DNA from: Trifolium pratense
Taxonomy: Eukaryota > Streptophyta > Magnoliopsida > Fabales > Fabaceae
Length of the DNA: 64,000 nucleotides
Reading direction: 5' to 3'
NCBI RefSeq assembly: GCF_020283565.1
Contig: NC_060061.1
Span: 19,009,362-19,073,361 of the forward strand
The notes beneath the pieces are model-generated. The model had not been told where the DNA came from. It ran no database searches and saw only the letters and a program-made list of their open reading frames with translations. The position numbers and the translations under genes were made by a program. Each line of letters opens with the position of its first letter. The stretch's first letter is position 1. This document shows positions 19,656-59,103 of this stretch, one piece after another.

Positions 19656-19701
19656 AAATAAACTCATAATGCTTCAAAAAAAAAAAAAATAAACTCATAA
19701 T
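19656..19701 (+). repeat. Micro-retroposon, 16-bp insert with 15-bp TSD
   Basis: The direct repeat aaataaactcataat (19656-19670, 19687-19701) flanks gcttc plus an A-run. The repeat's own A's make the exact edge uncertain by a few bases. Confidence 0.6.
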
Positions 19702-19712
19702 AAAATATAGAA

Positions 19713-20762
19713 GGCAGAATTACACAGATAGTCATTTATCTTATTTATTTGTAACACTTTAGTCCTCTATATTTTTTTTTTGTAACATATAGGTCCTTTA
19801 TCTATCAAAATATGCACAAATTAGTCCTTTTGTCCATTTTTTCTATTAAAAAACACTACAATAATACTTTTGTTAATAATTTTAATTTTAAAAACCCAGA
19901 AATTCGTCATTAGCTCTTCATCTTCATCATTAACTTCATACAATCCCAAAAATTCATCTTCATTTTCATATAATCCCAACACACACACAAAAATTAACAT
20001 AAACCCAAAAAAAGAAAAAGAAAAAAAACATTATGGAAACTTGGTTCCACTCGAAGATCTAAGTTAATAATATATATGATTGTAGTTTCCCGTTGCATAT
20101 CTAACTTAACAATCATACAATGGTTTTGCTCGGAAACAATAATTTGAACTTTGAAGGATAGATGGAAATTTGCTAATTTCCTTTCACTATTAAGCCCTAT
20201 TTCTTTCAATTGAATTTGGGGATTTTAAATTTTGATTTTAGAAGAAGATATGCAAGCAATTTGGATGAGCATTTTCTTTTTTAATTTAAGGAATAAGGAT
20301 GAACATGAGGATGAAGATGATGAACATTAGGAAAGATGTTCATAAAATTTATGGCTTTATGCATTTATGGGTTTTTAATTAAAGGAAAATGCTAAACAGT
20401 GCCCCCGGGGCACTGGTTAAGCATGTTAAAATAGAAATTTTGTCTCGAAATGCGTGCATTCAATGCCTCAAAAGTGCAAAAAGTTGTCTTTTCAATATAA
20501 ATTTTATTTTTTATTTCCTTTTTAGGTATACTTAACAAGTGCCCCCGGGGCACTGTTTAGCATGACCCTTAATTAAAATAGGTTTTAAAAATTAAAGTTA
20601 TTAATAAAAGTATTATTTTAGTGTTTTTTAATAGAAAAGACTAACAAAAGGACTAATTTGTGCATATTTTGATAGATAAAGAACCTATATGTTACGAAAA
20701 AAGGATAAATGACTAAAGTGTTACAAATAAATAAGATAAAAGACTATCAGTGTAATTCTGCC
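19713..20762. mobile_element. Mutator-like element, 1,050 bp, long TIRs, 9-bp TSD
   Basis: The element begins ggcagaattacac and ends gtgtaattctgcc. The inverted arms extend about 170 bp (gtaacactttagtcc facing gactaaagtgttac; atgcacaaattagtcc facing ggactaatttgtgcat). The perfect 9-bp repeat aatatagaa flanks it (19704-19712, 20763-20771). Long TIRs plus 9-bp duplication indicate a TIR-MULE. The interior (19890-20360) has CT-rich, UTR-like sequence and no intact frame; a MITE is nested at about 20380-20572. Confidence 0.9.
20380..20572. mobile_element. Palindromic MITE with GGGGC core ends (family member 1)
   Basis: Left end aatgctaaacagtgcccccg and right end gcactgtttagcat are inverted; both contain agtgcccccggggcact, itself a palindrome, and both are flanked by ttaattaa. 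It lies within the Mutator-like element. Related, more decayed copies: 22506-22620, 40310-40520, 51175-51350. Confidence 0.75.
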
Positions 20763-22354
20763 AATATAGAACTAGAAGAACTTATCGAAATTTGACTGAG
20801 GCGTGCAATGCACTGAGCTTAAGAGTATTTCGCCACCACATGTAAATTATCTGGTGCGGTTGGTCTAATAACTAATACCCTCCATGATACAAGAGTCACT
20901 TCTTACTAGCATTGCACGTGAATTAGCAAGGTCTCGACGAACTACTTTTAGATGCTGATGAGAATTTAGTTTATATATAATTCACTCATAATTTTTCTTC
21001 ATGTTTCTCACATTCTCAAACCCATGTATATAAGTCATACCTAGGATCCCCCTCATATGTTAACGTTGCAATATCCTAATATTCAAGCCAAATCATGATT
21101 CCTCTTTATTAGGACTGTAACCGATGGTAGTATAACAACTAGCAACCATTTAATTATACATGTACATAATGAAGGCGGCGTCTACGGTGCATAAGTCACT
21201 CATATCTTGCACCATGGAAGACCTATTTCCTCCGTTGGATCAAAATAGTTCACATGATATTATCATGTGCTGTATGTATTAAATATATTAATTAATTATT
21301 TGTTTCCACCGAAAAACAGTTCTCTATCCTCTCTCATTACAGAATTCATTCCACCATGACCGTCGGCATCCACCTTTGAGCTTCTCATCAGTCTCATTAC
21401 TTATTTAGCCATGAAATCAGCAATACTTAAATTTATCTCTTCCTCCTCTACGAAACCACTCAAATAAATTTCAGATTACACAGATTTAAAAAAACCCAAC
21501 CGCTGCTGTCTCTTATTTTCCGGCCACCGTTGGCCACATATGGAGAAACCAGACTGGCAGTTTTCTACCCCTTGATATCCGTAACGAAACCCCTAAATAT
21601 ATTTTATGATCGGAGAACTTTTAGCGGCAACCACCATGTTAAAAATCAGTTCCAAAATCGCCGGAATTCGGAGAACTATTTTCATCGTTTTCTCTCCCTA
21701 TGTCTATGAACACTCATTTAAGTTTCAACACTTATGGCCAAAAACAAAAAATGAAGTTAATTAATTAAGTAAAAGCATTGAGATTTTGATAAATGAAATT
21801 AATGAGAAATGAAAAGGACATATGCAAGTAGAATAAGAGTTGGTGAAGCATCGCACAGTGATTATGGAAGATGGAGACTTCTCCTGTGGCCTGTGGGTTG
21901 AGGCTTGAGACGATTGAGAAAGAAAAGGGAAAAAATCAAGTGTTGATGACCTACAATAAGATTTGGTGTGTCTGTAAATCTAACTGTTAAAATATTGTTG
22001 TGCACCATGAAAGACATCCCTTGCTATTTCATATTAGAAAAAGCTCATAATGAATAATAATGTTAATAATAATTATATACAAATTACCTTTAAAATAAAT
22101 TATTATCCTACATGGACAAATTATGCAGCAAGAGACAGGACAAAAACAAGATTTTTTGTCCTTGAACCACATGACAATTATAAAAAATACGAAAATACTC
22201 ATTTTATTTTCGAATATAAAAATATTATCGCCCTATATCTCTTCGGTACAGTTTTGTCCTGTCCTGTATTATCTTGTTCTGTCGTGTACTGTTCTGTCCA
22301 GTTCTTGTTGTTTTACGAATCAAACGCACCCCTAGACTCACAACAACTTCAACT

Positions 22355-22460
22355 AGTATATTTTTTTTTCAAAGTATTTTAAGATGAATAAGTGGAATAA
22401 TCAGAGTTCGAACCGCAAACCTACTATAATGTAATATCCCTGCGTATATAATTATTTTAC
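22355..22460 (-). repeat. Truncated SINE-like piece
   Basis: Minus-strand layout: tRNA-like B box as gagttcgaacc on plus at about 22405 and a T-run on plus at about 22363-22371. The same word set (agatgaataagtgga) recurs at 43200. Confidence 0.5.
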
Positions 22461-22499
22461 AATGGGTGCTTATAACAAGAGATGCAGAGAGTAATATTT

Positions 22500-22620
22500 A
22501 AGGGTATGCTAAACAGTATCTCGGGTCATTTGGTAAGCATATTAAAAAAAAAATTAAAGATAAATTATTGCAAGAAAGATTTTTTTTATGTTTTCAAGCT
22601 ATAATACACAAATTTCAAAA
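22500..22620. repeat. Decayed fragment of the ggggc-MITE family
   Basis: Starts gggtatgctaaacagt and shares the following word order with 20391-20440. The right end is not found. Confidence 0.5.
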
Positions 22621-23216
22621 TAAATCTTTCATATTATGTTCAACTAGTATATTTTTGTATAATTAATCCGTCTTAAATATTTTACCTTCTTATTTTTTCC
22701 AATGTCGATTTTCTTTTTTCAAATGGGAAATACGGTATTTTATGTCTAATTCTTTTGAGAGCAACAATTATCTTTATATTTTGTTGGCAAGTGCTAACTA
22801 GTGTTAAGAGTATAAATTTAAAAGAAAAATAAAAAATTGAAAATTGCATTGTTAAAATTCTAAATTATGATTTTTTTTTTTCAATAGATTTTTTTCTTTT
22901 ATTTCTCTTTTTATCTTTTTTAAAGTCAGCAAGACCCTGTTTTTTTTTTTTTCATAGATGTTTCATATTCTTTTGGTTCTTCGAAAACAGAACCATGAGA
23001 ATGGCCAAAGGTCTTTCCAAATTCCTAGAATGCCATTCTCTAGCATTTACTATCATTTAAATCAATACCAATTCCAATGCTAACAATCACCAGAACCCAA
23101 ATCGACAATTTCAAAACCACATTACTCTTCAAAACACAAAATTCTTGGTTTTCTCTTCATATACTCCATTTCATGCAGTAAACAATTCCTCAAGAAAAGA
23201 AAAAAATTGTTAGGAT
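22621..23216 (+). other. Upstream flank and probable leader of RBR gene
   Basis: AT-rich; CT/CA-rich from about 23080 as in plant 5' leaders. No clear TATA box picked. Confidence 0.35.
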
Positions 23217-24614
23217 ATGGAGGGAACTTCTTCATCCTCTACAAAACATGATGATGATGATGATGATGCTGTAGAAATATTTCCAATATCTGATGATGAT
23301 GAGAAATATGCAGAGGAAATACAATTACAAGAAGCATTAACATTTTCCTCTGCTATTTCAAATACTAACAAAGAAATCCAAGTTATTGATCTTGAAATTG
23401 ATAATGTCAATGACACCCATTTGAGAAAACTCAAACTAAAAGAGAAAGAGACTTTTAAAGGTGAATCTTCTTCTTCTTCATCTCGGTTGAAACAAATTTC
23501 CTACTGTGGAATTTGTATGGAAGCTAAATCTAACGAAGAAATGTTCGAAAACCGAAACTGTTCTCACTCATTTTGTGAAGATTGTGTTGGACTATATCTA
23601 GCTGCAAAAATTCAAGAGAATATATCAATGGTAAAATGTCCTGATCCGAAATGCAATGGTATTTTGGAGCCACATAATTGTATTTCAATTATACCAAAAG
23701 ATGTGTTTGATAGATGGGGAAATGCACTTTGTGAGAATATGGTGATAGGTTCACAGAAATTTTATTGTCCTTTCAATGATTGTTCAGCTATGTTGATGAA
23801 TGATGAAGTGGAAGCTGTGACTGTTGCGGAATGTCCACATTGTCATAGATTGTTCTGTGCACAATGTAAGGTTTCGTGGCACGCCGGTGTTGATTGTAGA
23901 GAGTTTCAAAGCTTGAAAGATGGCGAGCGAGGAAGGGAAGATTTAATGGCTATGGAACTTGCTAAGAATAAGAGATGGAAAAGATGTCCAAAATGTAGCT
24001 ACTATGTTGAAAAAAGTGACGGATGTACTCGCATTTCATGCAGGTATAGACAGTTATGTTTTGTTTAAGTGTTATAATTTTTTAGATATTTTAAGTGTTA
24101 TAATCTTTTTTAGATTAGATGGTAAATAGTTTATATTGGAAAACAGATTGCATATGCTGATAACCGCGTTAACGCAGTTATAAACAAATGGTCATGATCA
24201 TTTTGACCTATATGTATTATAACTCTCTGATGTGAAATCAGTGGACAAGATTGTTTACTGCATGTTACTGTCTTATTTATTAACCACTGCAAATCTTGGT
24301 CCGTTTATATTGTAAGAAAATAAAATTTCATGCTATTAAAATGCATAAATAACATTAAAACTGTAAATGTCCTCATGAGCTTAGCTCAATTGGTAGGGAT
24401 ATCAGCATTTTATATGCATTAGAAAAATGCTAATAAGTGTTCAAACTTGTAGTAAATATAATAAAATTATTTTGAAAGTTATTATGTAGCAAATCTCTTA
24501 AAAATGTATTTAGTAATTGTGATTAAACTTATCTGCAGGTGTGGTAATCAATTTTGCTATGGCTGTGGATCCACATGGAATGGTGAGTCCCATTATTCAT
24601 GTGCAACTAGATAG
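23217..24614 (+). CDS. RBR (RING1-IBR-RING2) E3 ubiquitin ligase, 300 aa
   Basis: Exon 1 is 23217-24043 and exon 2 is 24539-24614; the splice joins AG+G to code Arg276, and the stop is at 24612. Acidic, Ser-rich N terminus (1-90). RING1 covers about 97-146 (CGICMEAK..., CSHSFCEDC, CPDPKC); IBR about 184-227 (CPFNDC, CPHCHRLFCAQC). RING2 starts at 257 (CPKCSYYVEKSDGCTRISC) and continues in exon 2 with CGNQFCYGCG; Cys270 in DGCT fits the catalytic Cys that takes ubiquitin from E2. RBR ligases work by a RING/HECT-like hybrid mechanism. Resembles the plant RNF144/ARI-like group; the target is unknown. Residues 55-63 (QVIDLEID) look like a SUMO-interacting motif. Ends 15 residues after RING2, with no transmembrane tail. 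Confidence 0.9.
24375..24470 (+). repeat. SINE-like piece in RBR intron
   Basis: A box gagcttagctcaattggta at about 24378; the B box is decayed (gtgttcaaacttg). It lies within the 495-bp intron. Confidence 0.55.
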
Positions 24615-25190
24615 TAAACTTGTATGGCCGAGTGAAATTGCAAAGCTCAATGTTACAACAATAATTGACTGATGATTGTGATGTAACTTTGAGTAAGGAG
24701 TTTTATTTATTTTCTTGATTTATGGTGAACAACAAAACTCTCTTTCATATTAGTCTTTTCAATATTTTTAGTTTTGTGTGGCTGCTGTATTCACGTAGTT
24801 TATAGCTTTTGGTTATGTCATGTTCTAGAGAATTAAGTTCTTGTGGTCATGGGAGGCAAATTTATCTCACCCCCTTTTTCTTTTCCAATTTTGTTTTCTT
24901 CACCAAATTAGTAATTGTGGTTGATGTATTGTATGGTGACATGGTGGTTATTGTCAAGTGTCAACATAGTTATGATGTTTTTTTCTATTATGTGATGCTT
25001 TTGTATTCTAGTTTTATTTTTTCTTTATAAAAATGTTGGCATGGAGTAAAATTAATTTCCTTTCCCTCCTTTTCTCTGAGTTAGATTTTGAGTTATTTTA
25101 TGTAACTCTCACAACACTCTAGTTTAATTTGTTTTCAAATAAACTACTAAAAAAAAATGAGTGTTTTTAAAAAAATCTAAAAATTAATTT
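24615..25190. other. RBR 3' flank
   Basis: AT-rich, presumably 3' UTR then intergenic; the frame at 24809-25030 has no known domain. Confidence 0.4.
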
Positions 25191-25194
25191 CTAC

Positions 25195-25255
25195 GTTATT
25201 AAGTATCAAATTTTTATTTATTTATTTTTTGGTGACTGTTATTAAGTATCAAATT
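25195..25255 (-). repeat. Micro-retroposon, 25-bp insert with 18-bp TSD
   Basis: gttattaagtatcaaatt occurs at 25195-25212 and 25238-25255. Between them is a T-rich 25-mer that reads agtcacc followed by an A-rich tail on the minus strand. Confidence 0.65.
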
Positions 25256-25355
25256 ATTTTATCATAATTGATGATAAACTGTGCAGAAAAAAAAAGCCAG
25301 AATTGAAATTAAGCATTGTGTACTGACTATCTATGATTAAGTGGATAAGATATTA

Positions 25356-25396
25356 ATATTTGAGTTCTTTTGTCAAAAAAATATATTTGAGTTCTT
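25356..25396 (+). repeat. Micro-retroposon, 13-bp insert with 14-bp TSD
   Basis: atatttgagttctt at 25356-25369 and 25383-25396 flanks ttgtcaaaaaaat. Confidence 0.6.
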
Positions 25397-25461
25397 CAAA
25401 TAAGTGGTTAGAGGTTTTGTCACTGTGGTGAAATATTAATGTTAAAATAATAGAATGTGGC

Positions 25462-25570
25462 ACAAAGCGTCCGGTGAGTTTAACTCAATTGACATGACAT
25501 TGCACTGTATATAAGGGTCAGTGTTCAAATTCCGGTCATTTTACTTATTCATTTAAGGATGATATTTATA
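25462..25570 (+). repeat. SINE-like repeat
   Basis: A-box-like gtgagtttaactcaattg at about 25473 and B-box-like gtgttcaaattcc at about 25522. Same family as 24375 and 59222. Confidence 0.5.
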
Positions 25571-25639
25571 ACCACTTGATTACTTGACAACAAAAACTGC
25601 GGCGCAAAGCATGCAGTAGTATAAAGTAGGAATAATTTT

Positions 25640-26250
25640 TATCTGGTCATGGCATTTTTTTTAATAACAAATGAATATATTAATGAAGATAAACAATACA
25701 CACTTGTTGGGCTATGAAACTATGTTTGTCCACAATCCACACAGAGTTGGGCCTTTCTAAGGACTATTTGCCCAAGCTATGAGCCGCTTATTACCTTGAG
25801 AGTTTTTTGGTCGCCCTATGAATTTGTGGTGCGTCCTATTTTTATTTATCCGTTACTTAAATAGTAGATGAGTAAAAATGAGAAATTTAAGGAAAAGTGT
25901 CACCCGCTACTTAAGTAGGGAATGGTGTTTGAAAAAATAGTAGGATAGTAAAAGAAACTCTATTCCCTCCGCATCTCATGTGCCTAAAGACAATTCTTTG
26001 GAAAAAGTTATCTCATCAACTAAACTGGCCCACATACGACTTGAGCTGAGCTCTATCCCTTCCCTAAGAACCTTAATCAGCTCAGCACAATCAAATTCAT
26101 CAACTCTCAGAAAACAACAATTTTTCACAAATAACATTGTTTTTCGGAGTTGTAGTCTCTACCACTGAGGGATCCTTGAAACCATTTGAGGACCAAGTCG
26201 CAAGCAATTGCACACAAACCCTTCTTCGTCTCAAATCAGTCAACTATATG
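25640..26250 (-). pseudogene. Possible LINE/RNase H-type remnant
   Basis: A T-run at about 25648 (A-tail on minus) is followed to the right by minus-strand open pieces containing residues like RVDEFDCAELIKVLREGIELSS (broken by stops), faintly resembling the C-terminal RNase H region of plant LINE ORF2. Weak. Confidence 0.3.
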
Positions 26251-26384
26251 AGACACCCTCATGAGAAATGTTTGCATTAGAATTGGCTTTTAAAATACCC
26301 ATATTTTGCTTGATCCACAAGATTTTACTATTTTAGACACTCCATTTACACACAAATAAATATAGAAAATAATTAAGTAATATG

Positions 26385-26515
26385 TTTTTTTAGTAGTCTG
26401 GTGGTTAGAAATTTCACTCTTAGAAACATAAATTGGGTGTTCGGGGTTCGAACCCCCAACCGTACATATATAATGTGATATCCCTATCAACTGAACTAAA
26501 TTTATGAGAACAAGT
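26385..26515 (-). repeat. SINE-like repeat
   Basis: On the minus strand, an A-box-like phrase derived from atcaactgaactaaattt (about 26482) precedes an intact B box gggttcgaacccc (about 26444), and a short A-run follows. Confidence 0.55.
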
Positions 26516-27518
26516 AATATGTACTTTTAAAACCATTAAATATATTTCATCTGATCTTTAATATAAGAAAAAGTTCACTTTTTAACTGCATTAAAAAAGA
26601 TTAATATATGTAAACATTAAATTTACGATAACATATAATTGTAGTAAGAATGTGTGAATTATTCACCAAGTAATAAACTGTCATAGTCTCAAAGAAAAAG
26701 TAAACGGTCAATATGTGTATAGTAATAATAATCACAGTATATATGAGCAGTATACAATAAGTACTTTTGGCGAACCAATATGAAATCGAAATGAATAAAG
26801 AAATTTTTCTTATTGATTTGTGCAAAAGCAGATTAAAATGACTTTGTCTAAGGGAGACATAGTCACCATCCATGAGGAAAGGTAACTGTTTTGACAAGAA
26901 TCAGAATATATAGCCCTCAACTCACGTCTTACCAAACACTTTTCCTAACAAAAATATATTGAAGGACCAATTAGTTGCATCAAATTAGGGAGTCCACATT
27001 GCCTAATTGGAAACCCAAGAAGCCAGCTTACATAGGTCTCTCTCTTTTTGACTAGTATTATACGATTTACGAGTCAATAATCAATCGTTAGTTAATTTAA
27101 GAGTGATTGACGTTACATTTGATAGAGAGAATCAAAGTTCAATCCTTAATAACTACGATCAGAAAGAGCTAAAACCACTTTTGATATCAGAACTTATCTC
27201 TGAAGCATATTAGACGGTCCGGTGGACCACTGATGGTGAAAAAAAAACATAAAAATTACAAGTCAATAAAATAGATTTGTCATTCAAATTTCAACTGTAT
27301 ACATAAATAATACGACACAACTCGATAACGAGTGTGTTTTCACTTTATTATTATTTTTTTAAAAAAACTATCAGTTGTGATGGAAAGAAATAAATAATCT
27401 TAGTTAAAGATGAAATTTTCTTAAAAATAATAAATGTAATATTTTGAGATTTTCAATGTTTCTTAAAAATGCACACAACCGTTCACTTCAAGAGTCTACT
27501 ATCTTTTTGTTAGTAAGT
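26516..27518. other. Intergenic, mostly nothing
   Basis: AT-rich. 27110-27245 contains a decayed SINE-like segment (gttcaatcc B box at about 27138; ends in an A-run at 27240). Confidence 0.4.
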
Positions 27519-27582
27519 AAAATTAAAACTGATTTGGGCCTCGGCCCTCTTTCTCTACCAAAAAAAAAATTAAAACTGATTT
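27519..27582 (+). repeat. Micro-retroposon, 30-bp insert with 17-bp TSD
   Basis: aaaattaaaactgattt at 27519-27535 and 27566-27582 flanks a 30-mer that starts gggcctcggccctc and ends ctaccaaaaaa. The tail is like that of the LINE relic at 57.6 kb. Confidence 0.7.
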
Positions 27583-27630
27583 TAGAAAATAAAAATAGAA
27601 AACATTTTTCACAAAATAAATGGTGTCTTA

Positions 27631-43480: not shown

Positions 43481-43523
43481 ACATTGGGCCTTGATGTTTT
43501 TTTTTTTTATAATGACATTGGGC
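43481..43523 (-). repeat. Micro-retroposon, 25-bp insert with 9-bp TSD
   Basis: acattgggc at 43481-43489 and 43515-43523 flanks a 25-mer consisting mainly of a T-run, reading cattataaaa on the minus strand. Confidence 0.45.
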
Positions 43524-44158: not shown

Positions 44159-44249
44159 CATTCCTCGCCATGTTTTTTTTTTTTTTTTTTATAAAATATT
44201 AGCGTGCATAGGCATCACATGATAATTATGACATCTCATTCCTCGCCAT
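44159..44249 (-). repeat. Small retroposon, 65-bp insert with 13-bp TSD
   Basis: cattcctcgccat at 44159-44171 and 44237-44249 flanks a 65-bp insert. On the minus strand the insert starts agatgtcataattatc and ends in an uninterrupted A-run of about 18 preceded by attttat. Confidence 0.75.
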
Positions 44250-44611: not shown

Positions 44612-44658
44612 ATATTAGGGTATGTTTGCCATTAAAAAAAAACATATTAGGGTATGTT
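44612..44658 (+). repeat. Micro-retroposon, 17-bp insert with 15-bp TSD
   Basis: atattagggtatgtt at 44612-44626 and 44644-44658 flanks tgccatt plus an A-run. Confidence 0.65.
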
Positions 44659-47999: not shown

Positions 48000-48198
48000 C
48001 CTAGTAAGTAACTACTGCTGACCGTCCGATTAAAACTAAACGGTTGTAATTAAAATTGTAAAAAATCAATATATAAAATTAGATTAATTAGAATTGTTTG
48101 ATATATTTAAATGGTCGAGATTGTCTACCTCGTGAAACTGTGTGAAAACAGTACGGTAGACAATCAGTATGATGAATACTTGCATAAACACAACACTA
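48000..48198. other. SMR upstream region
   Basis: Contains gaccgtccgatt and gattgtctacc / ggtagacaatc inverted words, a possible small MITE. Confidence 0.4.
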
Positions 48199-48604
48199 AC
48201 ACTATGTTTGGATGTCAAAGAGATAGGGAAGAGAGAAATAGTGAAGAGAGAAATAAGAGAGAAGAGAGATAGAAGAGAAATTAGATAGAAATTTTATATG
48301 GTTTGGATGAATAGAAAAGTGAGAAGAGAGAAATTAATAAAAATGAGAAAATAACAAATTTACCCTTTTCTACAAGAAAATAAATTAGTTGAATGAGGGT
48401 ATTGTTGTAAAATTGTTTATTTCACTTCTTGTCACACAAATCTCTCCTAATATGGAGAAATTTATTTTTGGCAGTTATTAATCATTATATTTCTCTCTTT
48501 TCTTATTTCTCTCCTAATTCAAACCATTAAAATAGCTAATTTCTTTTCTATCTCTCTCTTTCTTATTTCTCTTTTTAGTAAATCTACCTAAACAAACACA
48601 ATGT
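48199..48604. mobile_element. MITE with GA/CT-rich arms
   Basis: Left acactatgtttggatg and right caaacacaatgt are inverted. The left arm is GA-rich (gaagagagaaataag) and the right arm CT-rich (cttatttctctc), so the whole can fold. Confidence 0.65.
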
Positions 48605-48950
48605 AAATAAAATATATTTAAGTACACATAACTAACTTTAAAAAATTAAAAGATAAAAAAATTAATTAATATTAAGTTGTGTCTAAATGTAGTTTATTTG
48701 AGATTGTGTCCATTTGAAATATATCACATTTTATACTAGTACCGGTGAATTTATTAACCATTGAGAAATTTGGAATAGCTAATGTAATCGGCTTTATAAT
48801 AATGATCAAATAAATTAGTATTTAGAAAGTAAATTTTATTTATAATTAACAATCGGAGGGACTATATCATACCACAATCAGTTGATAATAGTTAAAATGA
48901 TGAATGAATATGTGTGGAAATATGATATTTTACCAATCATGTTTTAGCTA

Positions 48951-48992
48951 ACTATACACGAGACTGCGTCAAAAAAAAACTATACACGAGAC
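48951..48992 (+). repeat. Micro-retroposon, 14-bp insert with 14-bp TSD
   Basis: actatacacgagac at 48951-48964 and 48979-48992 flanks tgcgtc plus an A-run. Confidence 0.65.
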
Positions 48993-49092: not shown

Positions 49093-49125
49093 GTGAGATT
49101 TTGTACCAAAAAAAAAAGTGAGATT
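49093..49125 (+). repeat. Micro-retroposon, 17-bp insert with 8-bp TSD
   Basis: gtgagatt at 49093-49100 and 49118-49125 flanks ttgtacc plus ten A. The same ttgtacc-A(n) is the 3' end of the LINE relic at 57.6 kb (minus strand). Confidence 0.6.
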
Positions 49126-49245
49126 ATTTATAAACTATTGCTTGTATTTTTGGTAAGGAACTTTGTTGGTTAATTTAATACATAAAATACTAACAAATTA
49201 AATTTGACACTAAATATATTTGTTGGCATATATTTAAAAATTATA

Positions 49246-49707: not shown

Positions 49708-50090
49708 AGGGTCTGTTTGGTAAAAATAAGCTATAAGCTAGCTGATAGCTGAAAATCTAGCTTATAGCTGATAGCTGAAAAGCTAGCTTATTGAAATTAA
49801 AGTGTTTGGTAAAATTAGCTTTTAAAGTGGTTATTAAATATAAAATTACATAATTGATAGTGGGTAGTTTATTTTTTAGAGTGGGTAGTTATTAAATTAA
49901 AGGGTAAAAATGGAATAAAGTGTAAAAAGCTATAAGCTATAAGCTCAAATGCTACTTGAAATAGCATCTGAAAAAAAGCTATAAGCTAGTACAAAAAACT
50001 TGTTACCAAACGCCTCTAATTTTTTGAAACAAGCTTATAAGCTCATATAATAAGCTATAAGCTAGCTTATTTGTGTTACCAAACAGAGCC
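49708..50090. mobile_element. MITE with gtttggtaa ends
   Basis: Left gggtctgtttggtaaa and right ttaccaaacagagcc are inverted. Many copies of agctataagctagct lie in both arms. Length about 383 bp. Confidence 0.75.
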
Positions 50091-51170: not shown

Positions 51171-51174
51171 ATAA

Positions 51175-51350
51175 AATGTTAAATAGTGTACCCGGTGCAC
51201 TAGTTAAACACATAAATAAGGAAATTTTTTCTTGAAACTCGTGCATTCAATGTATTGAAAGTGTAAAAAATTATTTTTATCAACATTAACTTTATGTTTT
51301 ATTTCTATTTTTGGTATGATTAACAAGTGCAACTGGTGCGCTATTTAAAT
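51175..51350. repeat. Decayed member of the ggggc-MITE family
   Basis: aaaatgttaaatagtg at the left and gctatttaaata at the right mirror the ends of 20380-20572, and the interior shares cgtgcattcaatg. Confidence 0.6.
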
Positions 51351-52498
51351 ATATATCAGTTGTAATATAGCAGAGGAAATATTACTTAATTTTGCCGCTT
51401 GTTTCCATTCGGGTAGCTTGATAGTAGTACTAGGCAAAGCCAAAGTCAATGAGATAATAATGAGTTACGTACAGCCAACATGATGGTATATGAAGAAAAG
51501 CATATCCAACCGGAAAGGAGTCCATGTTTATATAGTTTCTTCATTCAATTGCAGTAGCTAGCTAGTACGATCTACATTTTGCCATATTTTGAAGATTTTT
51601 AATCAAATTACTTATAATATGGCATGAAATGTTAGATTCTTGGACAAAAATTAATCATAGACTAAGTTGGTATGTATTTCGCATAAGAGCGTTGCTAAAT
51701 GGTGCGAATAAATACCATGTGAAATTTCACGAATATGTCCCCAACGTTAAACTGTTGCTTAGCGTTTTGATTTTTTTCAATCAATAAATTACTATAATCT
51801 CAACTAAACCAGAGGAAGTTAATTACAACTGGTTAACTCATCGGCAACTCATTAATTGCAACCACCGTCACTATTCTCTCATCATGCAAAAAAGCTTTAT
51901 CATGTTGTAGACCTTGTTCTTAACAATTGCTCCTCTCTGCAAGCAGCAGGAAACAACAACAAATGTGTACTCCACAGCTCACCACAAACTTCGTCGAGAT
52001 CGTTCCGCCATTAGAGAATTTCAGCCCCGCCGTGATATTGAAGCAGAACCACAAAATTAGAGTCGAAGAGGTGCGTCCGACGGTGATGGTGGGTTCACTT
52101 TTCTGTTGAAAGTGTCTGCCATGGTGGGTTCACTTTTCAATTCCGATGGAGTAGTCATCATGTGAACATATTTAGACCATGAAAGTAGTTGTCGGTGTGT
52201 GTTGAATTCAATAGAGATCAATTTTACTTGGAACTACAACATGTGATTATATGAAATGTGATTCGTGAATTTTCGCATGGTTTTCCTTCGCACTATTAAT
52301 CATTTTTCTTTCGCATAAATAACATGATTATAAAAAATTGATACGAAAAGTGGCATGACAATGTAGGGTCTAGCATGGGACATATCATATATATATGGAA
52401 AAGAAAACAAAGCAACACATCATGAATAACATATGCAGTTTCTTAGCATTCCACGCCGCGCTCATGCTTAATGATTTTGTAACCCATCAGAGGTCATC
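51351..52498. other. Intergenic with one small unassigned frame
   Basis: 51927-52109 is open for 60 codons (TNFVEIVPPLENFSPAVILK in its middle) with unusually mixed codons for this AT-rich region. I do not recognise it; it may be a gene fragment. Confidence 0.3.
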
Positions 52499-52555
52499 AT
52501 GTTCCCCTATCATATTTGCTTATCAAAAAAAAAAAAAAATGTTCCCCTATCATAT
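52499..52555 (+). repeat. Micro-retroposon, 21-bp insert with 18-bp TSD
   Basis: atgttcccctatcatatt at 52499-52516 and 52538-52555 flanks tgcttatc plus an A-run of 13. Confidence 0.75.
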
Positions 52556-54559
52556 TACATTACAATCATGGACTATATCTCGCATATATTTCAGATTTTC
52601 AACCCACTCAACCCTTGCCTTCTGCCCTACTATGTTTTAGGATGAAAAAATAATTTATCTATTCACCTTTTTTTTTATAATTAAGATTCACAAGATTTGA
52701 ACAATTAGTCTCGCCAATTACGTGGGGAGGATTTTAAATTTACACCTAAATAACCACAAAATTAAACACAATGTCAAACTGTTCGTAATAGAACTCAGAA
52801 TTATCCAAAAAGGATATAAAAGAAGGGTAGCTAGAGAACTCACGGTGGTGGATCAGTGGAAGGATGCTCCGAGTTGGAGGTCGGAATCCGACTATTTGAG
52901 ATAATCGACGATAGAAAAGGTGTACCTGCAGAAAATAATTAGACGCCCAAGTCAGTATAAGCTTGAGATAAATGTGAGGTTAAACTAATGCATACATTGT
53001 GAGATTATAGTGTGGTGGTTATATATGCCAAGGATTGTGACATTGGACCGATGAATATGGCATTGAGTTTGACCCGACCCAAAAGTCCAATCCATAACAC
53101 AAAAAATCACAATCTTCGTAAAAAGAACAATTTCTATGCTAGCAGTAGCCGGTGTTCATGGCTTTCAGATTTGAGATTAATTTCTATGCATTGAGAGGGT
53201 AATTTTTTGGTATACATGCATTCAATCAAATCATACTAATATTTCTAAAGATATTTGAAAAACTAACTTAAAAAAGTGACATCATGGAATAATTTAAATG
53301 GATGAACGTGCAAAAAAGTTTTACACTACTAATATATAAAAATTAAATCATTCAAATTTATGCCTTTAAATTTTTAATATTTACTTTTATCTTTTAAGTT
53401 GGGTTTCATTTGCGTTGGCAATTTGTAATTTAGTCTTTATTATAAACAAATAAAAATGCGTGTAAGTATAAGTTGAAAATCAAAATTGTTTTCAGTAATT
53501 TTCCATCGTCAAATATTGAATCTGGTTATTTGGAGAATCTTGGTCTATCGAATCAAGAGGTGATAGTAAAAGTGAAATTGCATAAGGTCTATGAAAAAAC
53601 ACAATCCTTCATGTTTCCTTATTTCTAACATCTCTTTCATCATAAATCTTGAAAATAATTTCAAGCACTCTGATTTCGACGGTAACTTCATCACTATTTT
53701 CGTTCCCATCAAAACTTTGACATCCCCACATGCCACCGTTGACTTCACCAAAGATGAAGAGCTTTTTTGATGAGAGAACAAAATCATATCCTCTCTACTT
53801 TTTGTTCAGTTTTGGGCTAGGCCCATTTCCTGTCAAAACTCAGGACTCAGCTGGACTCATTAATTTTTTTTGAGATTTTTTTTCTGGCGCCTCCTAGAAG
53901 TACTTGTTTGCGGTTTGCCCTCAAAAATTTCAAAAATACTCCTCGCTACTTAAGTAGCGAACTCAGGGGGCGCCAAATCTGGAAAAAATAGGGGGTAAAG
54001 GAAGGGGAAAGATACAAAAATATTAGATTTTATAAGATTCGCATTCTATAATACGAACTGAGTTTGGATTCTAGGATTCGAACTGTTTAGTAAAACATTA
54101 TTGATCGATAATTAAGCTTAAAGTTATCCTGAAAGAGATTCACGGGTATCTCTATTGCATATAGTTTGTATAAATGTTGCTGAAAGAATTTTTTACCAAG
54201 GTGAACCTAGATATACTTTGAACCTTATAAAACATGAATTGCTCAAAATGAAATAGTGAAATGTCAGCAAAAACTTTTAATCTATTCTCCAGAACTTGCT
54301 GAAAACCTTTTCCACTTGCATATATGTAAGACAGTCCTTACACAGTAAATATAAAGGTATACATACCAAATCCGATTCTAGGGTCGGATACTGAGTTTTG
54401 AAAAAAAAAAAAATCTATTTTCATAGATAAGCCAAAAAAGAAAAAGAACTGTGACCATTGAAGAGAGGTTCTTCCAGAAACATAATGATAAACCAGATAC
54501 ATGATTACATGTACAATATTTGAAAATAACTTATTGAGTTAACTTAAATCTAAATTGCT
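52556..54559. other. Intergenic; contains a repeat shared with 25.8-25.95 kb
   Basis: 53880-53985 holds a palindrome cgctacttaagtagcg bounded by ggcgcc on both sides; a relative is at 25800-25950. 54375-54412 ends ggtcggatactgagttttg plus an A-run, a SINE tail. The minus frame 53545-53787 has no known domain. Confidence 0.45.
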
Positions 54560-56468
54560 TCAACAACCTTGTAGTATTCCATCTCTGGCAGAAAGCAAGG
54601 AAGCAGTACTATGTTTTCCTGTTGTTGAATTAAAAGGGTGATCATCTTCTATTTTAAACCTCATAAGCCTAGAAGAATCATCTTCTCCACAATCCAATAA
54701 TGATTCTGATTCTCCATCCATGTTCCATTCATCCTTCCAAGGTTCCATGTTTTCTTTAGAACTTGATTCAGATTTCTGAATCAATTGATTGTTGGCAATA
54801 TCATCATCTTGATATATCATTGTTTTCTTGCTGTCCAAGGTTGAGAAAGAGGGCTTATTTTCCTGATCTTCATAGTTGTTTGAATCTGAATCACATCTAC
54901 GAATTGTGGTCGGCAATGATTTTTCGCGTAATATGGTTTGTGTTGAAGTTGATCTTTGTTGGAAACTTCCAAAACCTTGAATACCTCTTGATAATCTTCT
55001 ACATTGGTTTCTTTCTTCCTTGAGAAGTGTTCCTTCTTCCAACAGTTTCATTACTCTCTCTGATTTCTTTCTAACAGTTAGGCCCCAATTGAACCTGCAA
55101 ATTATCAATACAATTTGCATATTACTTATATATAAATTTTCTCTTATCTATGGCTTTCATCAAGAATATAGGCTTAAGGGTCTATTTAGATTGGTTTTTT
55201 GAGCTTTTCTCCTGATATAAACACTTGTGAGACTGTTCAGGAGATGTCTATAAGTTGTTTTCAGCTTATTTCTATAAGCTCGCCAAGATAACTTAAGAAA
55301 ACAGCTAATCATCTTTTATTTTAAAAATAACTTATACATAAACACTTATACGATAAGTGTTTATACTATAAGTGCTTAATTATGTTGTTTATCCAAACAG
55401 GACCTAAATAGTCAACAAAAACAACTAACTAGGGTAACTAACTTTTACATCTAACGGATTAGTCGGTCCGGCCGGATACCGAGTTTTCAAAAATAACTTT
55501 TACATCTAACGGCGCTAGTGTCAAGAGAAAGAAAATCAATGACCAAGTTTTAATATTAAAATTGAAAGGAAAAGAATAAAAGGCATACCCTTGTTGATCA
55601 ATATACTGAAAACCTTTAAGCTGGTTAATAACATCTTTATCACTCTGAAACTCCTCTGCTACACTTTCTGGTCCATGAGTCAACAAATGCTCAAGCACAA
55701 TCAAGGAATTGTAAGAGATCCTCCAATTCTTCTTTTCAAATTTAGCCAATCTGTTTTACAATTGTACCATTTGTTCATCCATCATGATTCATTTATTAAC
55801 AAAGAATAACAAGGTTTTAAATAAAAGTCCGCAATCCCAATCTGGGCCATAATAACATAACAGTTTTTGATATTGCATTAAACCACATTACAATTGCGTA
55901 AATGTTTGGTAGCACGGTCAATACGTCAGAATCATGGTATTCACCGTGATTTTCCAAAAGTTACACTTAGTGGCTTATGCAGATCACGGACCCACTGTGA
56001 TAGCAAACATATGCTGCAATTGAGACCACATCCCGAAATATTAAGAAATCACGACCGCTATTTAAAACTTTGGATGTATCAAGCTAAACATACCTTTTAT
56101 GTAGAATCTCTATAATCCTCCAATAATCATCTAGCTCAAAAGCAGCTTTTGAAATTGATCTAAGTGTTACAGTGTTTGGTGCCCATGGATTTTCATTAGT
56201 TGCCTCTTCTATCATTCTGCAAAGAGTAAACAAACACATACAAAGGGAAATAAGCATATACAATATATTAGAAATCCTATAGTTTTGGATATATGAAATA
56301 ATTTGAAGTGTATATAATTAAGATAAAAAACAAATCAATGATATCATAAAAGTAATAAGCTCACAATTCTGCAGGGGTGACATCAGTTAGAGCTAATCTA
56401 GCAGTTTTGATTTTCTCTTTGAGGAAGAAAGAAGCTTGTTTTTTGAATTCATTGAAAGGAGTACCCAT
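54560..56468 (-). CDS. Epsin-like ENTH-domain protein, 307 aa
   Basis: Four exons with GT/AG borders: 56468-56365, 56216-56094, 55750-55589, 55094-54560; stop at 54560. The ENTH domain covers about residues 15-150: FKKQASFFLKEKIK, then NPWAPNTVTLRSISKAAF, YWRIIEILHKR, WRISYNSLIVLEHLLTHGPE and GLTVRKKSERVMKLL, the usual helix order ending in the conserved VRKKS. The C-terminal half (155-307) is Ser/Asp-rich and looks disordered, with a weak clathrin-box-like ESLLDCGED and no DPW or NPF motif. ENTH proteins bind phosphoinositides and help clathrin vesicle budding. The length matches a small Arabidopsis ENTH/VHS protein group. Intron 3 (55095-55588) carries a MITE and a micro-retroposon; splicing looks unaffected. 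Confidence 0.92.
55178..55404. mobile_element. MITE in ENTH intron 3
   Basis: gggtctatttagattgg at the left and atccaaacaggacct at the right are inverted; the arms carry cttatacataaacactta-type words. About 227 bp. Confidence 0.6.
55439..55512 (+). repeat. Micro-retroposon, 36-bp insert with 19-bp TSD, ENTH intron 3
   Basis: taacttttacatctaacgg at 55439-55457 and 55494-55512 flanks a 36-mer ending ggataccgagttttc plus A's. Its last part matches the SINE tail at 54382-54412. Confidence 0.8.
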
Positions 56469-57590
56469 TTTGTTGTATTTTTGGTTCAAGAGTGTGCTTA
56501 TTTTCTTCCTTTAGGATAGAAAAAAATAGAGAGAGATGAATGAAAATAGAAAATTAGATTTAGGTATGGTTGAATTGGTAAAATATGGTGAGGTCAGAAA
56601 TTTCAACTAATCCATTAATCTGATCAAGATCTAGATTGTAATTATCAAATGTAACGACCCTTTGGCACGATTGATTGTCAATGTTTGAAAACAACAATTA
56701 ATTCAATATAGGAATGACATATGTGATGTTTTTATATTTTTAATTAACTGTCTGGTTTCCCGTGAAAGAGTTCGGTGGTAAGACAAGTAAGGAAAGAAGT
56801 CTGGTAACTTAGAATTCGATTGTCAGATAAACAAAGTTCGATAAAAAATTGTTTTTACTAAAAATTAAACTCGGATTCTCCTGACGTTCGATTTGAAGGA
56901 ACCACTTAAACTCAATGTTTTAGTTTGTGATTTTTTTTTATTTTTTTGGGTGAACCTGTTCATGACATATGTGATGCTTGGACTTTGATATAGAGAATTT
57001 AATTTAATTTGTATGTGACGTTTTTATTAAATGCCATTTTATGTTTTATTCATTATTTTTCTTGTTTCCTAGTGTTTATATTAACTTGTAAACACGTATG
57101 TGAAGTCGTCACTAGGGACTGTGGGCGGTTGATTTTTGAATTTTGAATATTATTTCAAAGTTTTTTTAGGGTAGGCATAGGCATTTAATTGTGTATGTGA
57201 GGGGAGCCAAACTATAATAATCTAGAAGCTCTTGCATGAACCACGAGATATCTATGTTGTTCTTGTTGATAATTATTTATAATTATGCATGCTTGTTGTT
57301 TCGGTCCATAGTAATCTTTATAACATGAGCTCAAGTCCATGATCAAAGTCTAGTTCTTTAACCTAAGAGGACTTGGATGAAATGGTAAGAGACCTTGGAT
57401 GAGATGGTGGATATATTTTTTAATTTAATAAGAGATTTTGGTTCAAATTTAGTTCTAAGATTAGTTTCTACAATTACATACAAATGATACTAGCATGGCT
57501 TAAACTTAAGAACTTTTAGATTTAAAATCTGTTTTTTTATAACTAGATCAAACCATTGGAGTTTTGATTGGTGTGTAGATTCATTGAGTT
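56469..57590. other. ENTH upstream region and intergenic
   Basis: 56760-56930 contains a SINE-like segment (gttcggtggtaag as an A box; aagttcgataaaaaattg) also seen at 59580-59700. No gene. Confidence 0.4.
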
Positions 57591-58150
57591 GTTTTTTTTT
57601 TGGTACAAGTAGGAGAGAAAAAAAACACAAAAGCAAACAAAGACCAAACTATCTAGAAAAGAAAGTCTCATTAGCATCGGCTAACAGGAGGAGACTCATT
57701 TCATCTGGGGGGTCAGCTAGAGGAGAATAAGTCTCAGGATGAGAAGCCCCAAACTTGGCAAGGTAGTCGGCGCAAGCATTGCCCTCTCGGCAAGTGTGAA
57801 CTATATGGATACGCCAATCTCTAGGGAGAAGCTCCTTAATATTGTGTATAATCGCTGCATAGTGTGTCAAGCGTTGACAGTTTCTGAGATCAACTTAATT
57901 GTAGACTTAGAATCTAAGTAACACCACAACTCCGTGAATCCAAAGCCCCACGCTAATACTAAGCCATAATAGATAGTCAATAGCTCCGCATGAAGGATGT
58001 TAGAGAAGCCTATGTTTCCAACAAAACCATGAATCCAAAAACCTGGGATACCAGGATTTCCAAGACTGCTCCCATCGACATTCAAAATCATACCAGTACC
58101 TCTGTGAGCATTCCACCGAACCTACTGAGTATCCGGATTCGAAGCTTGTT
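57591..58150 (-). pseudogene. 3' end of a LINE with RNase H domain, frameshifted
   Basis: Reading leftward, frame one (58091-57867) gives MILNVDGSSLGNPGIPGFWI, FSNILHAELLTIYYGL and ELWCYLDSKSTIKLI. After a frame change near 57868 comes HYAAIIHNIKELLPRDWRI, then HTCREGNACADYLAKFGA. D-GS, E-L, DS and H-REGN-CAD-LA-G are the active-site and core motifs of the RNase H domain at the end of plant LINE ORF2. The 3' tail reads ttgtacc plus A-run at 57592-57605. The element is 5'-truncated at about 58150-58260 and dead. Confidence 0.88.
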
Positions 58151-58260
58151 TAAAGAAGCATGTAAACAACAAATGCGCATAATTATCCGTCCACATCCTA
58201 AGCGTAGTCAGTGAAACCGACTCGTTTGCTAAGCACAAAAGAAGATTCATCTACTAAGTT

Positions 58261-58699
58261 CATATATCAAATTGGCATGAGATATAATTATCAAAATCAC
58301 ATGTTTAATTTTGACAAAAATTATATTTTATAGCTTCAATAAAATTAAAGTAGCATATGAATTTGTCAAACTTGCAACTGATCCTCCAAAAGTCCAAACA
58401 ATCACTAACTAATCCATTGAGCTTATTTTTTTTAATGAGCGATTAATGATCAAACCAAGCTTACTATGTCCAAAAAAGCATACTTCATGGGACTTGAGTA
58501 TTTTGGACAAAGCAGTCCAAGTGAGCAAGTCACAATCAACCAAATTTACTTACGTTCATGACAACCCATCAAACCATTGGAAATTTCGCCCAGCTAGAAC
58601 AATGAATCAATGACCATAGTATGTCACGTCCCTTTTAAATTTAGTCAAAAAAAAAAAAAAAAAAAACCGACGCAAATTATTCATCAAATTTTAACAAGA
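58261..58699. other. Intergenic, nothing recognised
   Basis: Contains an A-run of about 20 at 58647-58667. Confidence 0.4.
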
Positions 58700-59005
58700 A
58701 TGTCCACCATGAACAATTGATTAGTATTATTATAACGAATACGAATTTTACAAAATTTACCGTTAAATTGAAAGTTTATATCCTATAAATCATTCATAAA
58801 AAAAATTAGAAAAATTGAAAATTATTTGAGATGTTATTGAGACATATCAAGATTAACGGTATTCAAGAAAAACAAACAAACCGTTAATCTTAGTGAATCT
58901 CAATAACATATCAAATGATTTTTAATTATTCTAAATTTTTTAATGAATGATCTATATGATATAAATTTTCGGTTGATATTAGAATTTGCATGATAGATGT
59001 ATAAC
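58700..59005. mobile_element. MITE (copy 2 of the 35776-36165 family)
   Basis: Shares aaattgaaagtttatatc, gttattgagaca and its mirror caataacatatcaaatgat with copy 1, and folds at gattaacggt / accgttaatc. Confidence 0.7.
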
Positions 59006-59009
59006 TTGA

Positions 59010-59103
59010 AAGGTAGGTAGGAGCACATCATGAACTAAGTCAATAACCAAGAGGATTTTTTTTTATAATCAACCAAGAGGTAGGTAGGAGCACATCATGA
59101 ATT
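59010..59103. repeat. Local duplication enclosing a T-run micro-insert
   Basis: ggtaggtaggagcacatcat occurs at about 59012 and 59082. Inside, aaccaagagg (59045-59054, 59071-59080) flanks a 16-bp T-rich insert that reads gattat plus A's on minus. Confidence 0.6.

What the first reader, a model, noticed from the sequence alone, without database searches (positions are those of the whole stretch)
19656..59080. A swarm of micro-retroposons: 13-65 bp A-tailed inserts with 8-19 bp target duplications
Seen at 19656, 25195, 25356, 27519, 43481, 44159, 44612, 48951, 49093, 52499, 55439 and 59045: a perfect direct repeat of 8-19 bp encloses a tiny insert whose one end is an A-run (or T-run on the other strand). 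This is the product expected from target-primed reverse transcription that stopped almost at once. Several tails agree with longer elements in the same window (ttgtacc-A(n) of the LINE at 57.6 kb; gagttttc-A(n) of a SINE). Such inserts fall below repeat-masking length limits, so their number in plant genomes may be greatly underestimated.
Basis: partly seen in the sequence, partly recalled or inferred. Interest (0 to 1): 0.75.

Follow-up and report, generated by a model that had tools for sequence, protein, structure and literature searches.

The report
Seven-base stubs of aborted jumping genes
This plant genome appears to carry tens of thousands of tiny scars left when the copying machinery of LINE jumping genes gave up, usually about seven bases after leaving the poly(A) tail, which points to a hidden checkpoint in how these elements insert.

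Summary
All 12 sites hold the stated repeats; at 43481 the A-run is not terminal. An independent 190 kb of the same 413.6 Mb genome gives 23 inserts in the expected polarity against 3 in the mirrored control and none in 20 shuffles, for duplications of 12 bp or more. An empty site lies in the window: 48313-48329 holds once a 17-bp target that L128 and L129 carry twice around ATGTACC-A(14-15). Recurrent tails match ends of longer LINE and SINE-like elements, though most cores remain unassigned.

The new point is length. 19 of 24 cores of 15 nt or less, found without tail patterns, are 5-8 nt and none is 0-2 nt (14 of 19 outside the window). Of 56 targeted inserts 47 are 5-8 nt, mode 7. GCTTATC inserts stop at 7 nt in 15 of 16 while A-tails vary from 8 to 23. 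Best reading: endonuclease-started, target-primed reverse transcription that aborts about 7 nt past the poly(A). TPRT origin is near certain; why it stops there is inferred. Density suggests about 34,000 copies, with wide error.

The parts
19656..19701 (+). micro-insert: TSD 15 bp, core GCTTC (5 nt), A-tail
   Evidence: GCTTC-A9 has no clear genome-wide excess
25195..25255 (-). micro-insert: TSD 18 bp, core AGTCACC (7 nt), tail A6TAAATAAATAAA
   Evidence: missed by the scans because the tail is interrupted
25356..25396 (+). micro-insert: TSD 14 bp, core TTGTC (5 nt), A7, one extra T
   Evidence: TTTGTC-A ends 5 of 20 LINE ends read
27519..27582 (+). insert with 24-nt core GGGCCTCGGCCCTCTTTCTCTACC; starts at the first base of a GGGCC/GGCCC hairpin like those of family-A LINE 3' ends; TSD 17 bp
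43481..43523 (-). probable old micro-insert: exact repeat 9 bp, core CATTAT (6 nt) if a decayed TSD is allowed
   Evidence: weakest of the twelve
44159..44249 (-). 65-bp A-tailed insert (46-nt core, A18, one extra C), TSD 13 bp; not of the 5-8 nt class
44612..44658 (+). micro-insert: TSD 15 bp, core TGCCATT (7 nt), A9, one extra C
48950..48992 (+). micro-insert: TSD 15 bp, core TGCGTC (6 nt), A-tail
49093..49125 (+). micro-insert: TSD 8 bp, core TTGTACC (7 nt), A10
   Evidence: TTGTACC-A8 occurs 1190 times genome-wide vs 30 for the reversed pattern
52499..52556 (+). micro-insert: TSD 18 bp, core TGCTTATC (8 nt), A-tail; matches the end of LINE family C
55439..55512 (+). 31-nt truncated end (ATTAGTCGG...GAGTTTTC) of a SINE-like element + A5, TSD 19 bp
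   Evidence: longer copy in L016, 88% over 45 bp
59045..59080 (-). micro-insert: TSD 10 bp, core GATTAT (6 nt), A9, one extra T
48313..48329 (+). EMPTY SITE: single copy of the 17-bp target AGAAAAGTGAGAAGAGA that is duplicated around ATGTACC-A(14-15) in L128 and L129
57592..57608 (-). 3' end TTGTACC-A(n) of a longer LINE (body at higher coordinates; the RNase H-like reading is mine, not a family hit)

Best explanation
The inserts are footprints of abortive LINE-driven retrotransposition. (1) A plant L1-type endonuclease nicks one strand at a Y|AA site. (2) The freed T-rich end primes on the poly(A) of an RNA: LINE or SINE for the tails that could be traced, possibly mRNA for others. (3) The reverse transcriptase copies a variable stretch of A and then about 7 nt of the body. 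(4) It stops there, at a place set on the RNA relative to the start of the poly(A), not after a fixed amount of cDNA. (5) The gap is closed, leaving TSD - 5 to 8 nt - A(n) - TSD. Steps 1-3 are shown by sequence anatomy and one empty site; the preferred stop in step 4 is shown statistically. Its cause is inferred: a weak point at the switch from initiation on poly(A) to processive copying. Either the rA:dT hybrid leaves the RT cleft after about 7 bp, or a folded or protein-bound 3' UTR still tethered to the enzyme limits template slack, as a template boundary does in telomerase (analogy from recall).
For: Polarity: 23 right vs 3 wrong in 190 kb; 21 vs 0 for A>=8 in 254 kb. Empty site with 17-bp target. 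TSD mean 15.7 bp in 56 inserts; +1 is A in 46, +2 is A in 42, -1 is T or C in 44. Recurrent tails match longer elements: TTTGTC ends 5 of 20 LINE ends downstream of RNase H; GCTTATC ends an element whose 598-aa open stretch hits PF13966 zf-RVT. Preferred length: 19 of 24 pattern-free cores of 15 nt or less are 5-8 nt, none 0-2, against 5.1 expected under a geometric law; targeted cores 5:8, 6:11, 7:25, 8:3, other 9, of 56. GCTTATC: 15 of 16 inserts at 7 nt, one at 6, with A-tails of 8-23; the other 4 of 20 sites are longer elements, none between. No shorter GCTTATC forms: TTATC-A9 1788 vs 1333 reversed, and 31 of the first 100 TTATC places are GCTTATC (hand count over), leaving about 1234. Core and A length uncorrelated, rho 0.11, P 0.40.
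Against: Lower bounds in the targeted sets are partly set by the patterns searched (>=5 or >=7 nt). In the TTGTC and GTACC sets the stop spreads over 5-8 nt, so it is a preferred zone, not one exact base. The TTGTC micro-inserts do not fit the family-B LINE ends beyond 6 nt: the 5 TTTGTC LINE ends read GTTTGTC, while no strict TTGTC insert does (TTTTGTC and TGTTGTC occur), so their exact source is unknown (by eye). By eye only about 7 of 24 pattern-free cores match a traced tail. The excess of the traced patterns, about 3200 TTGTC, 2100 GTACC and 800 GCTTATC at A8-A9, is well under the estimated 34,000. GCTTC-A9 shows no clear excess (564 vs 459) though GCTTC occurs three times in the catalogue. 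32 of 88 targeted sites did not pass the strict micro-insert filter. A-tails can change by slippage after insertion. Several 5-nt cores follow a TSD ending in T, so microhomology blurs their start. In 12 of 17 folded LINE/SINE ends the predicted pairs run to within 1 nt of the poly(A), so no common hairpin was shown. Nothing here shows the enzyme stopping.
Confidence: 0.75

Rival explanations
1. Ordinary 5' truncation: the RT falls off at random, and micro-inserts are simply the short end of a broad length distribution.
For: A-tailed, TSD-flanked inserts with longer bodies exist in the same DNA (24, 31 and 46 nt in the window; a 114-nt insert in L012), and 5' truncation is well known for LINEs (recall).
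Against: Pattern-free cores pile up at 5-8 nt with none at 0-2. Of 20 GCTTATC sites 16 are micro and 4 long, none between. A>=8, repeat >=12: gap 4-40, 21 vs 0; 41-120, 6 vs 1; 121-400, 3 vs 0; 401-1200, 0 vs 0.
Confidence: 0.12
2. The template is a pre-cut RNA: nuclease trimming or small-RNA slicing leaves a 3' fragment of about 7 nt plus poly(A), which is then copied in full.
For: The boundary sits on the RNA, not on total cDNA length, and is sharp in GCTTATC.
Against: Three different tail groups (GTACC, GCTTATC, TTGTC) all stop near 5-8 nt, so a sequence-specific cut is unlikely; a 5'-3' exonuclease halted by a protein on the poly(A) remains possible.
Confidence: 0.15
3. Host mRNAs rather than LINE/SINE RNAs are the main templates (micro processed pseudogenes); the 5-8 nt are plant mRNA cleavage-site sequence. 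This concerns the template and is compatible with the same stop.
For: By eye about 17 of 24 pattern-free cores match no traced element tail. Many cores end in C or T before A, like plant poly(A) sites (recall). The traced patterns sum to far less than the estimated total.
Against: Some tails recur far above control: TTGTC-A9 3568 vs 348, GTACC-A9 2313 vs 172, GCTTATC-A8 816 vs 11, and GCTTATC and ATGTACC match longer elements.
Confidence: 0.2
4. Double-strand-break repair with filler DNA or patch-mediated tandem duplication, or replication slippage at A-runs; no retrotransposition.
For: Repeat-derived false positives exist in the window (3668-3712, 16130-16179, 61586-62335).
Against: Strand polarity of the A-run relative to the duplication, recurrent tails shared with longer elements and Y|AA target bias are not expected from repair or slippage.
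Confidence: 0.02

Closest known systems
5'-truncated L1-clade LINE and SINE insertions made by target-primed reverse transcription in flowering plants
   Same: A-tail at the 3' end, TSD of about 16 bp, AA-starting target; recurrent tails equal to 3' ends of longer elements
   Different: The body is only 5-8 nt, its length is clustered rather than spread, and in the sampled DNA inserts with gap <=40 outnumber those of 41-400 bp (21 vs 9 before control)
Simple poly(A)/poly(T) insertions at L1 endonuclease sites in human disease genes, e.g. the poly(T) insertion in NF1 exon 25 (PMC3219598, passages read)
   Same: A near-bodiless retroposition product, read there as a possibly severely truncated Alu, L1 or processed pseudogene
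   Different: That insert is about 120 bp of T in one patient; here the A-runs are short, a 5-8 nt body is present, and copies run to an estimated tens of thousands
Plant L1 lineage with a 3' stem-loop (stringent recognition), reviewed in PMC3747384 (passages and section 4.3 read)
   Same: 5 of 20 LINE ends here (family A) carry a GGC-type hairpin about 12-13 nt before the poly(A) (by eye)
   Different: The CGAG flank described there was not seen in the LINE ends printed (by eye); whether a hairpin sets the stop is untested
Telomerase template boundary (recall)
   Same: Works like it: copying stops at a fixed template position a few nt long
   Different: No relationship claimed; analogy only

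Membership tests
TPRT product of a LINE (L1-type) machinery | target-site duplication flanking the insert | tested here: met
   57 of 88 targeted sites pass the strict filter vs 21 of 1760 mispaired-flank trials
TPRT product of a LINE (L1-type) machinery | A-tail at the 3' end, polarity fixed relative to the TSD | tested here: met
   mirrored control: 23 vs 3, 21 vs 0
TPRT product of a LINE (L1-type) machinery | L1-type endonuclease target (TT|AAAA-like) | tested here: met
   +1 A in 46 of 56, +2 A in 42 of 56, -1 T or C in 44 of 56; the maximal-repeat convention inflates leading A somewhat
TPRT product of a LINE (L1-type) machinery | inserted body equals the 3' end of a known element | tested here: inconclusive
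   met for GCTTATC, TTGTACC and ATGTACC; TTGTC only to 6 nt; most pattern-free cores unassigned
TPRT product of a LINE (L1-type) machinery | empty pre-insertion site | tested here: met
   for one insert (L128/L129); paralogous copies, not another accession
TPRT product of a LINE (L1-type) machinery | activity of the enzyme in cells or in vitro | not testable with these tools
   needs experiment
Random 5' truncation | broad, monotone body-length distribution | tested here: not met
   19 of 24 in 5-8 nt, geometric expectation 5.1; 24 cores only (19 of 26 if two dropped repeat hits are put back)
Stringent-type LINE with 3' stem-loop as the cause of the stop | conserved hairpin at constant distance from the stop in every family | tested here: inconclusive
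   last predicted pair 12-15 nt before poly(A) in 5 of 17 folded ends; in the other 12 the predicted pairs reach within 1 nt of it; no covariation test run

The most novel reading that the evidence does not exclude
Plant LINE reverse transcriptase has a built-in early checkpoint: most TPRT attempts end about 7 nt after the enzyme leaves the poly(A), whatever the RNA, and each failure is fixed in the genome as a 7-nt + A(n) scar with a full TSD. Failed attempts would then outnumber successful long insertions and be a major unannotated source of small insertions and A-runs.
Probability: 0.5. Interest if true: 0.85.

Novelty: new variant of a known kind. Interest (0 to 1): 0.72.

Why it matters
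Aborted target-primed reverse transcription is normally invisible; here the failures appear to be written in the genome with a sharp length signature, so the initiation-to-elongation step of non-LTR retrotransposition could be read from sequence and tested in vitro. In the sampled DNA such inserts are more frequent than A-tailed, TSD-flanked inserts of 41-400 bp and would pass under repeat-annotation length limits, so LINE activity, small-indel spectra and A-run birth in this kind of genome may be misjudged. The inserts could also serve as phylogenetic markers: short, polar, with TSDs.

Tried and rejected
Tried without result. (a) L089 as an empty-site test: its TTGTACC-A9 sits in a repeat of which all 40 scored copies match over the full query. 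This family makes up 4 of the 28 TTGTACC sites read, and L005/L006 are one duplicated locus, so the count of 1190 is inflated. (b) Pattern for an empty SINE-like tail next to L076: 0 matches. (c) A softer mirrored scan looked weak, 75 vs 57, because with 10 nt of slack the mirrored sequence re-finds the real inserts; with slack 2 and an identity filter it is 30 vs 13 overall, 19 vs 3 for cores of 5-8 nt and 0 vs 4 for cores of 0-2 nt. (d) GCTTC-A9: no clear excess; its reversed control may be raised by a CTTCGG repeat seen at 61586 (inference). (e) Rfam scan of the window: 0 matches at gathering score. (f) ARAGORN on the window: 0 genes. (g) Gaps of 401-1200 show no polarity excess in any of the four settings (7 vs 13, 2 vs 5, 1 vs 3, 0 vs 0).

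Considered and rejected: a tiny element proliferating as GCTTATC-A(n) itself (no room for a promoter, and its tail matches a LINE); excision relics of long LINEs (no mechanism known to me leaves the last 7 nt and both TSDs).

Limits: no other plant genome or accession is held, so nothing is shown outside this genome; the species (probably red clover, from 7 chromosomes and 413.6 Mb) is recall. Microhomology was read by eye, not modelled.

Literature: ten searches were answered; none of the papers listed was, by title and start of abstract, a report of a 5-8 nt micro-insert class. Lists were capped and the library is open access only, so this is weak evidence of absence. Papers seen: PMC3747384 passages and section 4.3; PMC5135761 outline, abstract and passages; PMC3219598 and PMC4859970 passages; the rest only as search listings.
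Full report
Setting. The window is C3:19009362-19073361 of a 413.6 Mb genome with seven large chromosomes (53.6, 74.5, 54.4, 60.5, 57.9, 46.1 and 59.2 Mb). Size and chromosome number fit red clover, Trifolium pratense; this is recall and was not tested. The window is AT-rich (32% GC).

The observation. All twelve sites were re-derived: 12 of 12 have exact direct repeats of 8-19 bp around inserts of 13-65 bp. In 11 of 12 an A-run lies at or within one base of one end of the insert; at 43481 the A-run is followed by seven other bases and the site works only with a decayed duplication. Read on the strand with the A-tail, the non-A cores are 5, 7, 5, 24, 6, 46, 7, 6, 7, 8, 31 and 6 nt, so 9 of 12 lie in 5-8 nt (hand reading).

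More than chance. The best control is mirrored sequence (read backwards, or complemented without reversing): it keeps composition and A-runs but reverses the polarity that target-primed reverse transcription demands. In the window the scan gave 19 expected vs 8 mirrored, 6 of the 8 from one repeat unit, and a mean of 0.25 in 40 dinucleotide shuffles. The independent test is 19 stretches of 10 kb at preset round coordinates on C1-C7 (19 of 20 asked for; 500 N): repeat >=10, 31 vs 4; >=12, 23 vs 3; >=14, 16 vs 3; >=16, 8 vs 0; shuffles at >=12, 0 in 20. Window and sample together, A-run >=8 and repeat >=12: gap 4-40, 21 vs 0; 41-120, 6 vs 1; 121-400, 3 vs 0; 401-1200, 0 vs 0. Density in the 190 kb for repeat >=12, A>=7, gap <=40 is 17 vs 1, a net 84 per Mb (bootstrap over loci 32-153), or about 34,000 in 406 Mb. 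The inserts cluster: L017 and L009 have 4 each, while 11 of 19 loci have none.

Where the tails come from. Downstream of RNase H (PF13456) matches (150 scored of 5602 first-look candidates) I read 20 ends chosen across the list. By eye, 5 of 20 (family A) have a GGC-type hairpin, a U-rich spacer and ...CTACC or another short end before A(n); 8 of 20 (family B) end TTTGTC (5), TCGTC (2) or GTGTC (1) before A(n); the other 7 end otherwise or show no A-run of 7. Family C...AATTATTTGCTTATC-A(n), was found through its tail; one copy has a 598-aa open stretch with a zf-RVT domain (PF13966, 1.3e-17). Two copies ending ...ATCTATGTACC-A(n) (L131, L138) are my reading of a SINE. The LINE in the window ends ...CCTACTTGTACC-A(n), and a longer copy of the body of site 55439 is in L016 (88% over 45 bp). 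Genome-wide pattern counts against the same pattern reversed: TTGTACC-A8 1190 vs 30, TTGTC-A9 3568 vs 348, GCTTATC-A8 816 vs 11, GTACC-A9 2313 vs 172, TTATC-A9 1788 vs 1333, GCTTC-A9 564 vs 459. The last shows no clear excess. The TTGTACC count is inflated by a young repeat that carries it (4 of the 28 sites read). The traced patterns together are far fewer than the estimated 34,000, and by eye only about 7 of 24 pattern-free cores match a traced tail. The source of most cores is therefore open, and mRNA tails are a live possibility.

What these tails look like at their sites. I read the first 20 listed places for TTGTC (L028-L047), the first 20 for GCTTATC (L068-L087), the first 28 for TTGTACC (L001-L008, L088-L107) and the first 20 GTACC places not in the TTGTACC list (L128-L147). 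Under a strict alignment filter (score >=9, low-complexity TSDs removed) a TSD is found at 12 of 20, 16 of 20, 15 of 28 and 14 of 20; comparing flanks of different sites gives 21 of 1760. Rows dropped by the low-complexity filter include L128, L129, L145, L093, L094 and L096, which look duplicated by eye. Of the 57 that pass, 56 have cores of 15 nt or less: 3:1, 5:8, 6:11, 7:25, 8:3, 9:3, 10:2, 11:2, 13:1; TSD mean 15.7 bp; A-tails 8-26. The one long core is L029 (56 nt). L034 of the TTGTC set is the end of a LINE (it lies 87 bp past an RNase H match). The strict TTGTC inserts read TTTTGTC, TGTTGTC or shorter before the tail, whereas the five TTTGTC LINE ends read GTTTGTC; the match holds for 6 nt only.

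The preferred stop. Of 20 GCTTATC sites, 16 are micro-inserts. In softer alignment 15 begin exactly at G, 7 nt before the A-run, and one reads 6; the strict filter gives 13 of 16 at 7 and three displaced by a TSD mismatch or indel. Their A-tails run from 8 to 23. Of the other four, three share upstream sequence with each other and the fourth (L085) with other loci; nothing lies between. The pattern itself forbids shorter forms, so I counted TTATC-A9: 31 of the first 100 places are GCTTATC (hand count over), which leaves about 1234 of 1788, no more than the reversed control of 1333. The pattern-free catalogue avoids this bias: 24 cores of 15 nt or less, after removing window hits that are tandem or palindromic repeats (two of the three removed had cores of 14 and 15), are 3, 4x2, 5x8, 6x4, 7x5, 8x2, 9, 13. 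So 19 of 24 lie in 5-8 nt against 5.1 for a geometric law and 6.0 for a uniform one; 14 of 19 without the window. In mirrored sequence only 3 cores of 5-8 nt occur, against 19. Core and A length are uncorrelated (rho 0.11, P 0.40). The stop therefore looks set by position on the RNA relative to the poly(A), not by how much cDNA has been made. In the TTGTC and GTACC sets it spreads over 5-8 nt, and some 5-nt cores follow TSDs ending in T, which would make them 6-7 nt if those bases belong to the insert.

Empty site. The repeat at window 48195-48460 aligns with L128 and L129 on both sides. The window has AGAAAAGTGAGAAGAGA once (48313-48329); L128 and L129 have it twice, around ATGTACC-A14 or A15 and one G. 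A genome search with the window copy scored 40 of 190 candidates; all 40 (the window's own included) span the site in 207-222 bases of genome for a query of 221, i.e. without the roughly 39-base insert and duplication. The scored ones are those most like the query, so this does not measure how common filled copies are; L128 and L129 are not among them. L128 and L129 lie 57 kb apart and differ in the aligned part only by one A, so this is probably one insertion later copied (inference).

Mechanism. Shown: polarity, TSD, Y|AA target, recurrent tails shared with longer elements, one empty site, preferred stop near 7 nt. Inferred: that the RT itself aborts. Two forms fit. (i) Hybrid exit: the RT cleft holds about 7 bp of hybrid (recall), and when the last rA:dT pairs leave, the complex is weakest. 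(ii) Tether: a 3' UTR structure still held by the enzyme limits slack. For (ii), the last predicted pair lies 12-15 nt before the poly(A) in 5 of 17 folded ends (L050, L055, L057, L064, and L082 after correcting for two A in its slice), but in the other 12 predicted pairs run to within 1 nt of it, and no covariation test was run. The similar stop over different tails slightly favours (i). A pre-cut RNA template is the main mechanistic rival. Site 27519, whose 24-nt body starts at the first base of a family-A-like hairpin, hints that structure can also set a stop.

Known or new. Severe truncation is known: human NF1 carries a simple poly(T) insertion at an L1 endonuclease site, which its authors say may be a severely truncated Alu, L1 or processed pseudogene (PMC3219598, passages). 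Plant L1 lineages and a 3' stem-loop in one of them are reviewed in PMC3747384 (passages and section 4.3), and conserved 3' UTR stem-loops are proposed for human L1 and Alu (PMC5135761, abstract and passages). My ten answered searches listed no paper whose title or abstract start reports an abundant class with a 5-8 nt body. The products are members of a known kind (TPRT insertions); the clustered length and abundance make them a new variant.

Noticed in passing
window 48195-48460: Copy of a high-copy repeat; 40 scored copies at 95-100% identity, about 220 bp aligned, with a weaker inverted match nearby in many of them (MITE-like).
   Followed up: partly
L089 (C1:1946472-1946772), also L001, L090, L097: Young repeat family (40 scored copies at 99-100%) with internal tandem units that carries TTGTACC-A9; possibly a micro-insert hitchhiking in a DNA transposon.
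   Followed up: partly
window 61586-62335: Paired TTCGGTTTATATAAACCGAA units, a palindromic repeat also present in L027; a false positive of the TSD scan.
   Followed up: partly
L017 (C3:2000001-2010000) and L009 (C1:2000001-2010000): Four micro-inserts each in 10 kb while 11 of 19 loci have none: clustering, perhaps in gene-rich arms.
   Followed up: no
window 27519-27582: Insert body starts at the 5' base of a GGGCC/GGCCC hairpin like those of LINE 3' ends, suggesting structure-dependent stopping as well.
   Followed up: no
window 55439-55512: The SINE-like body contains CGAG shortly before its tail, the flank named for a stringent plant L1/SINE 3' end in PMC3747384 section 4.3; relation not tested.
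   Followed up: no
L108 about 3251-3291: A GCTTAT-A run lies about 40 bases upstream of the open stretch of a family-C LINE copy; the 5' end of that copy was not mapped, so one element may lie beside or inside another.
   Followed up: no
window 12051-14131 (-) and 23217-24068 (+): Open frames that read like a U-box/armadillo E3 ligase and an RBR-type RING protein (names from recall, no family search run).
   Followed up: no
window 20393-20559 and 51180-51347: Pairs of palindromic GTGCCCCCGGGGCAC-like repeats about 140 bp apart, two sets 31 kb apart (repeat finder D11), MITE-like.
   Followed up: no
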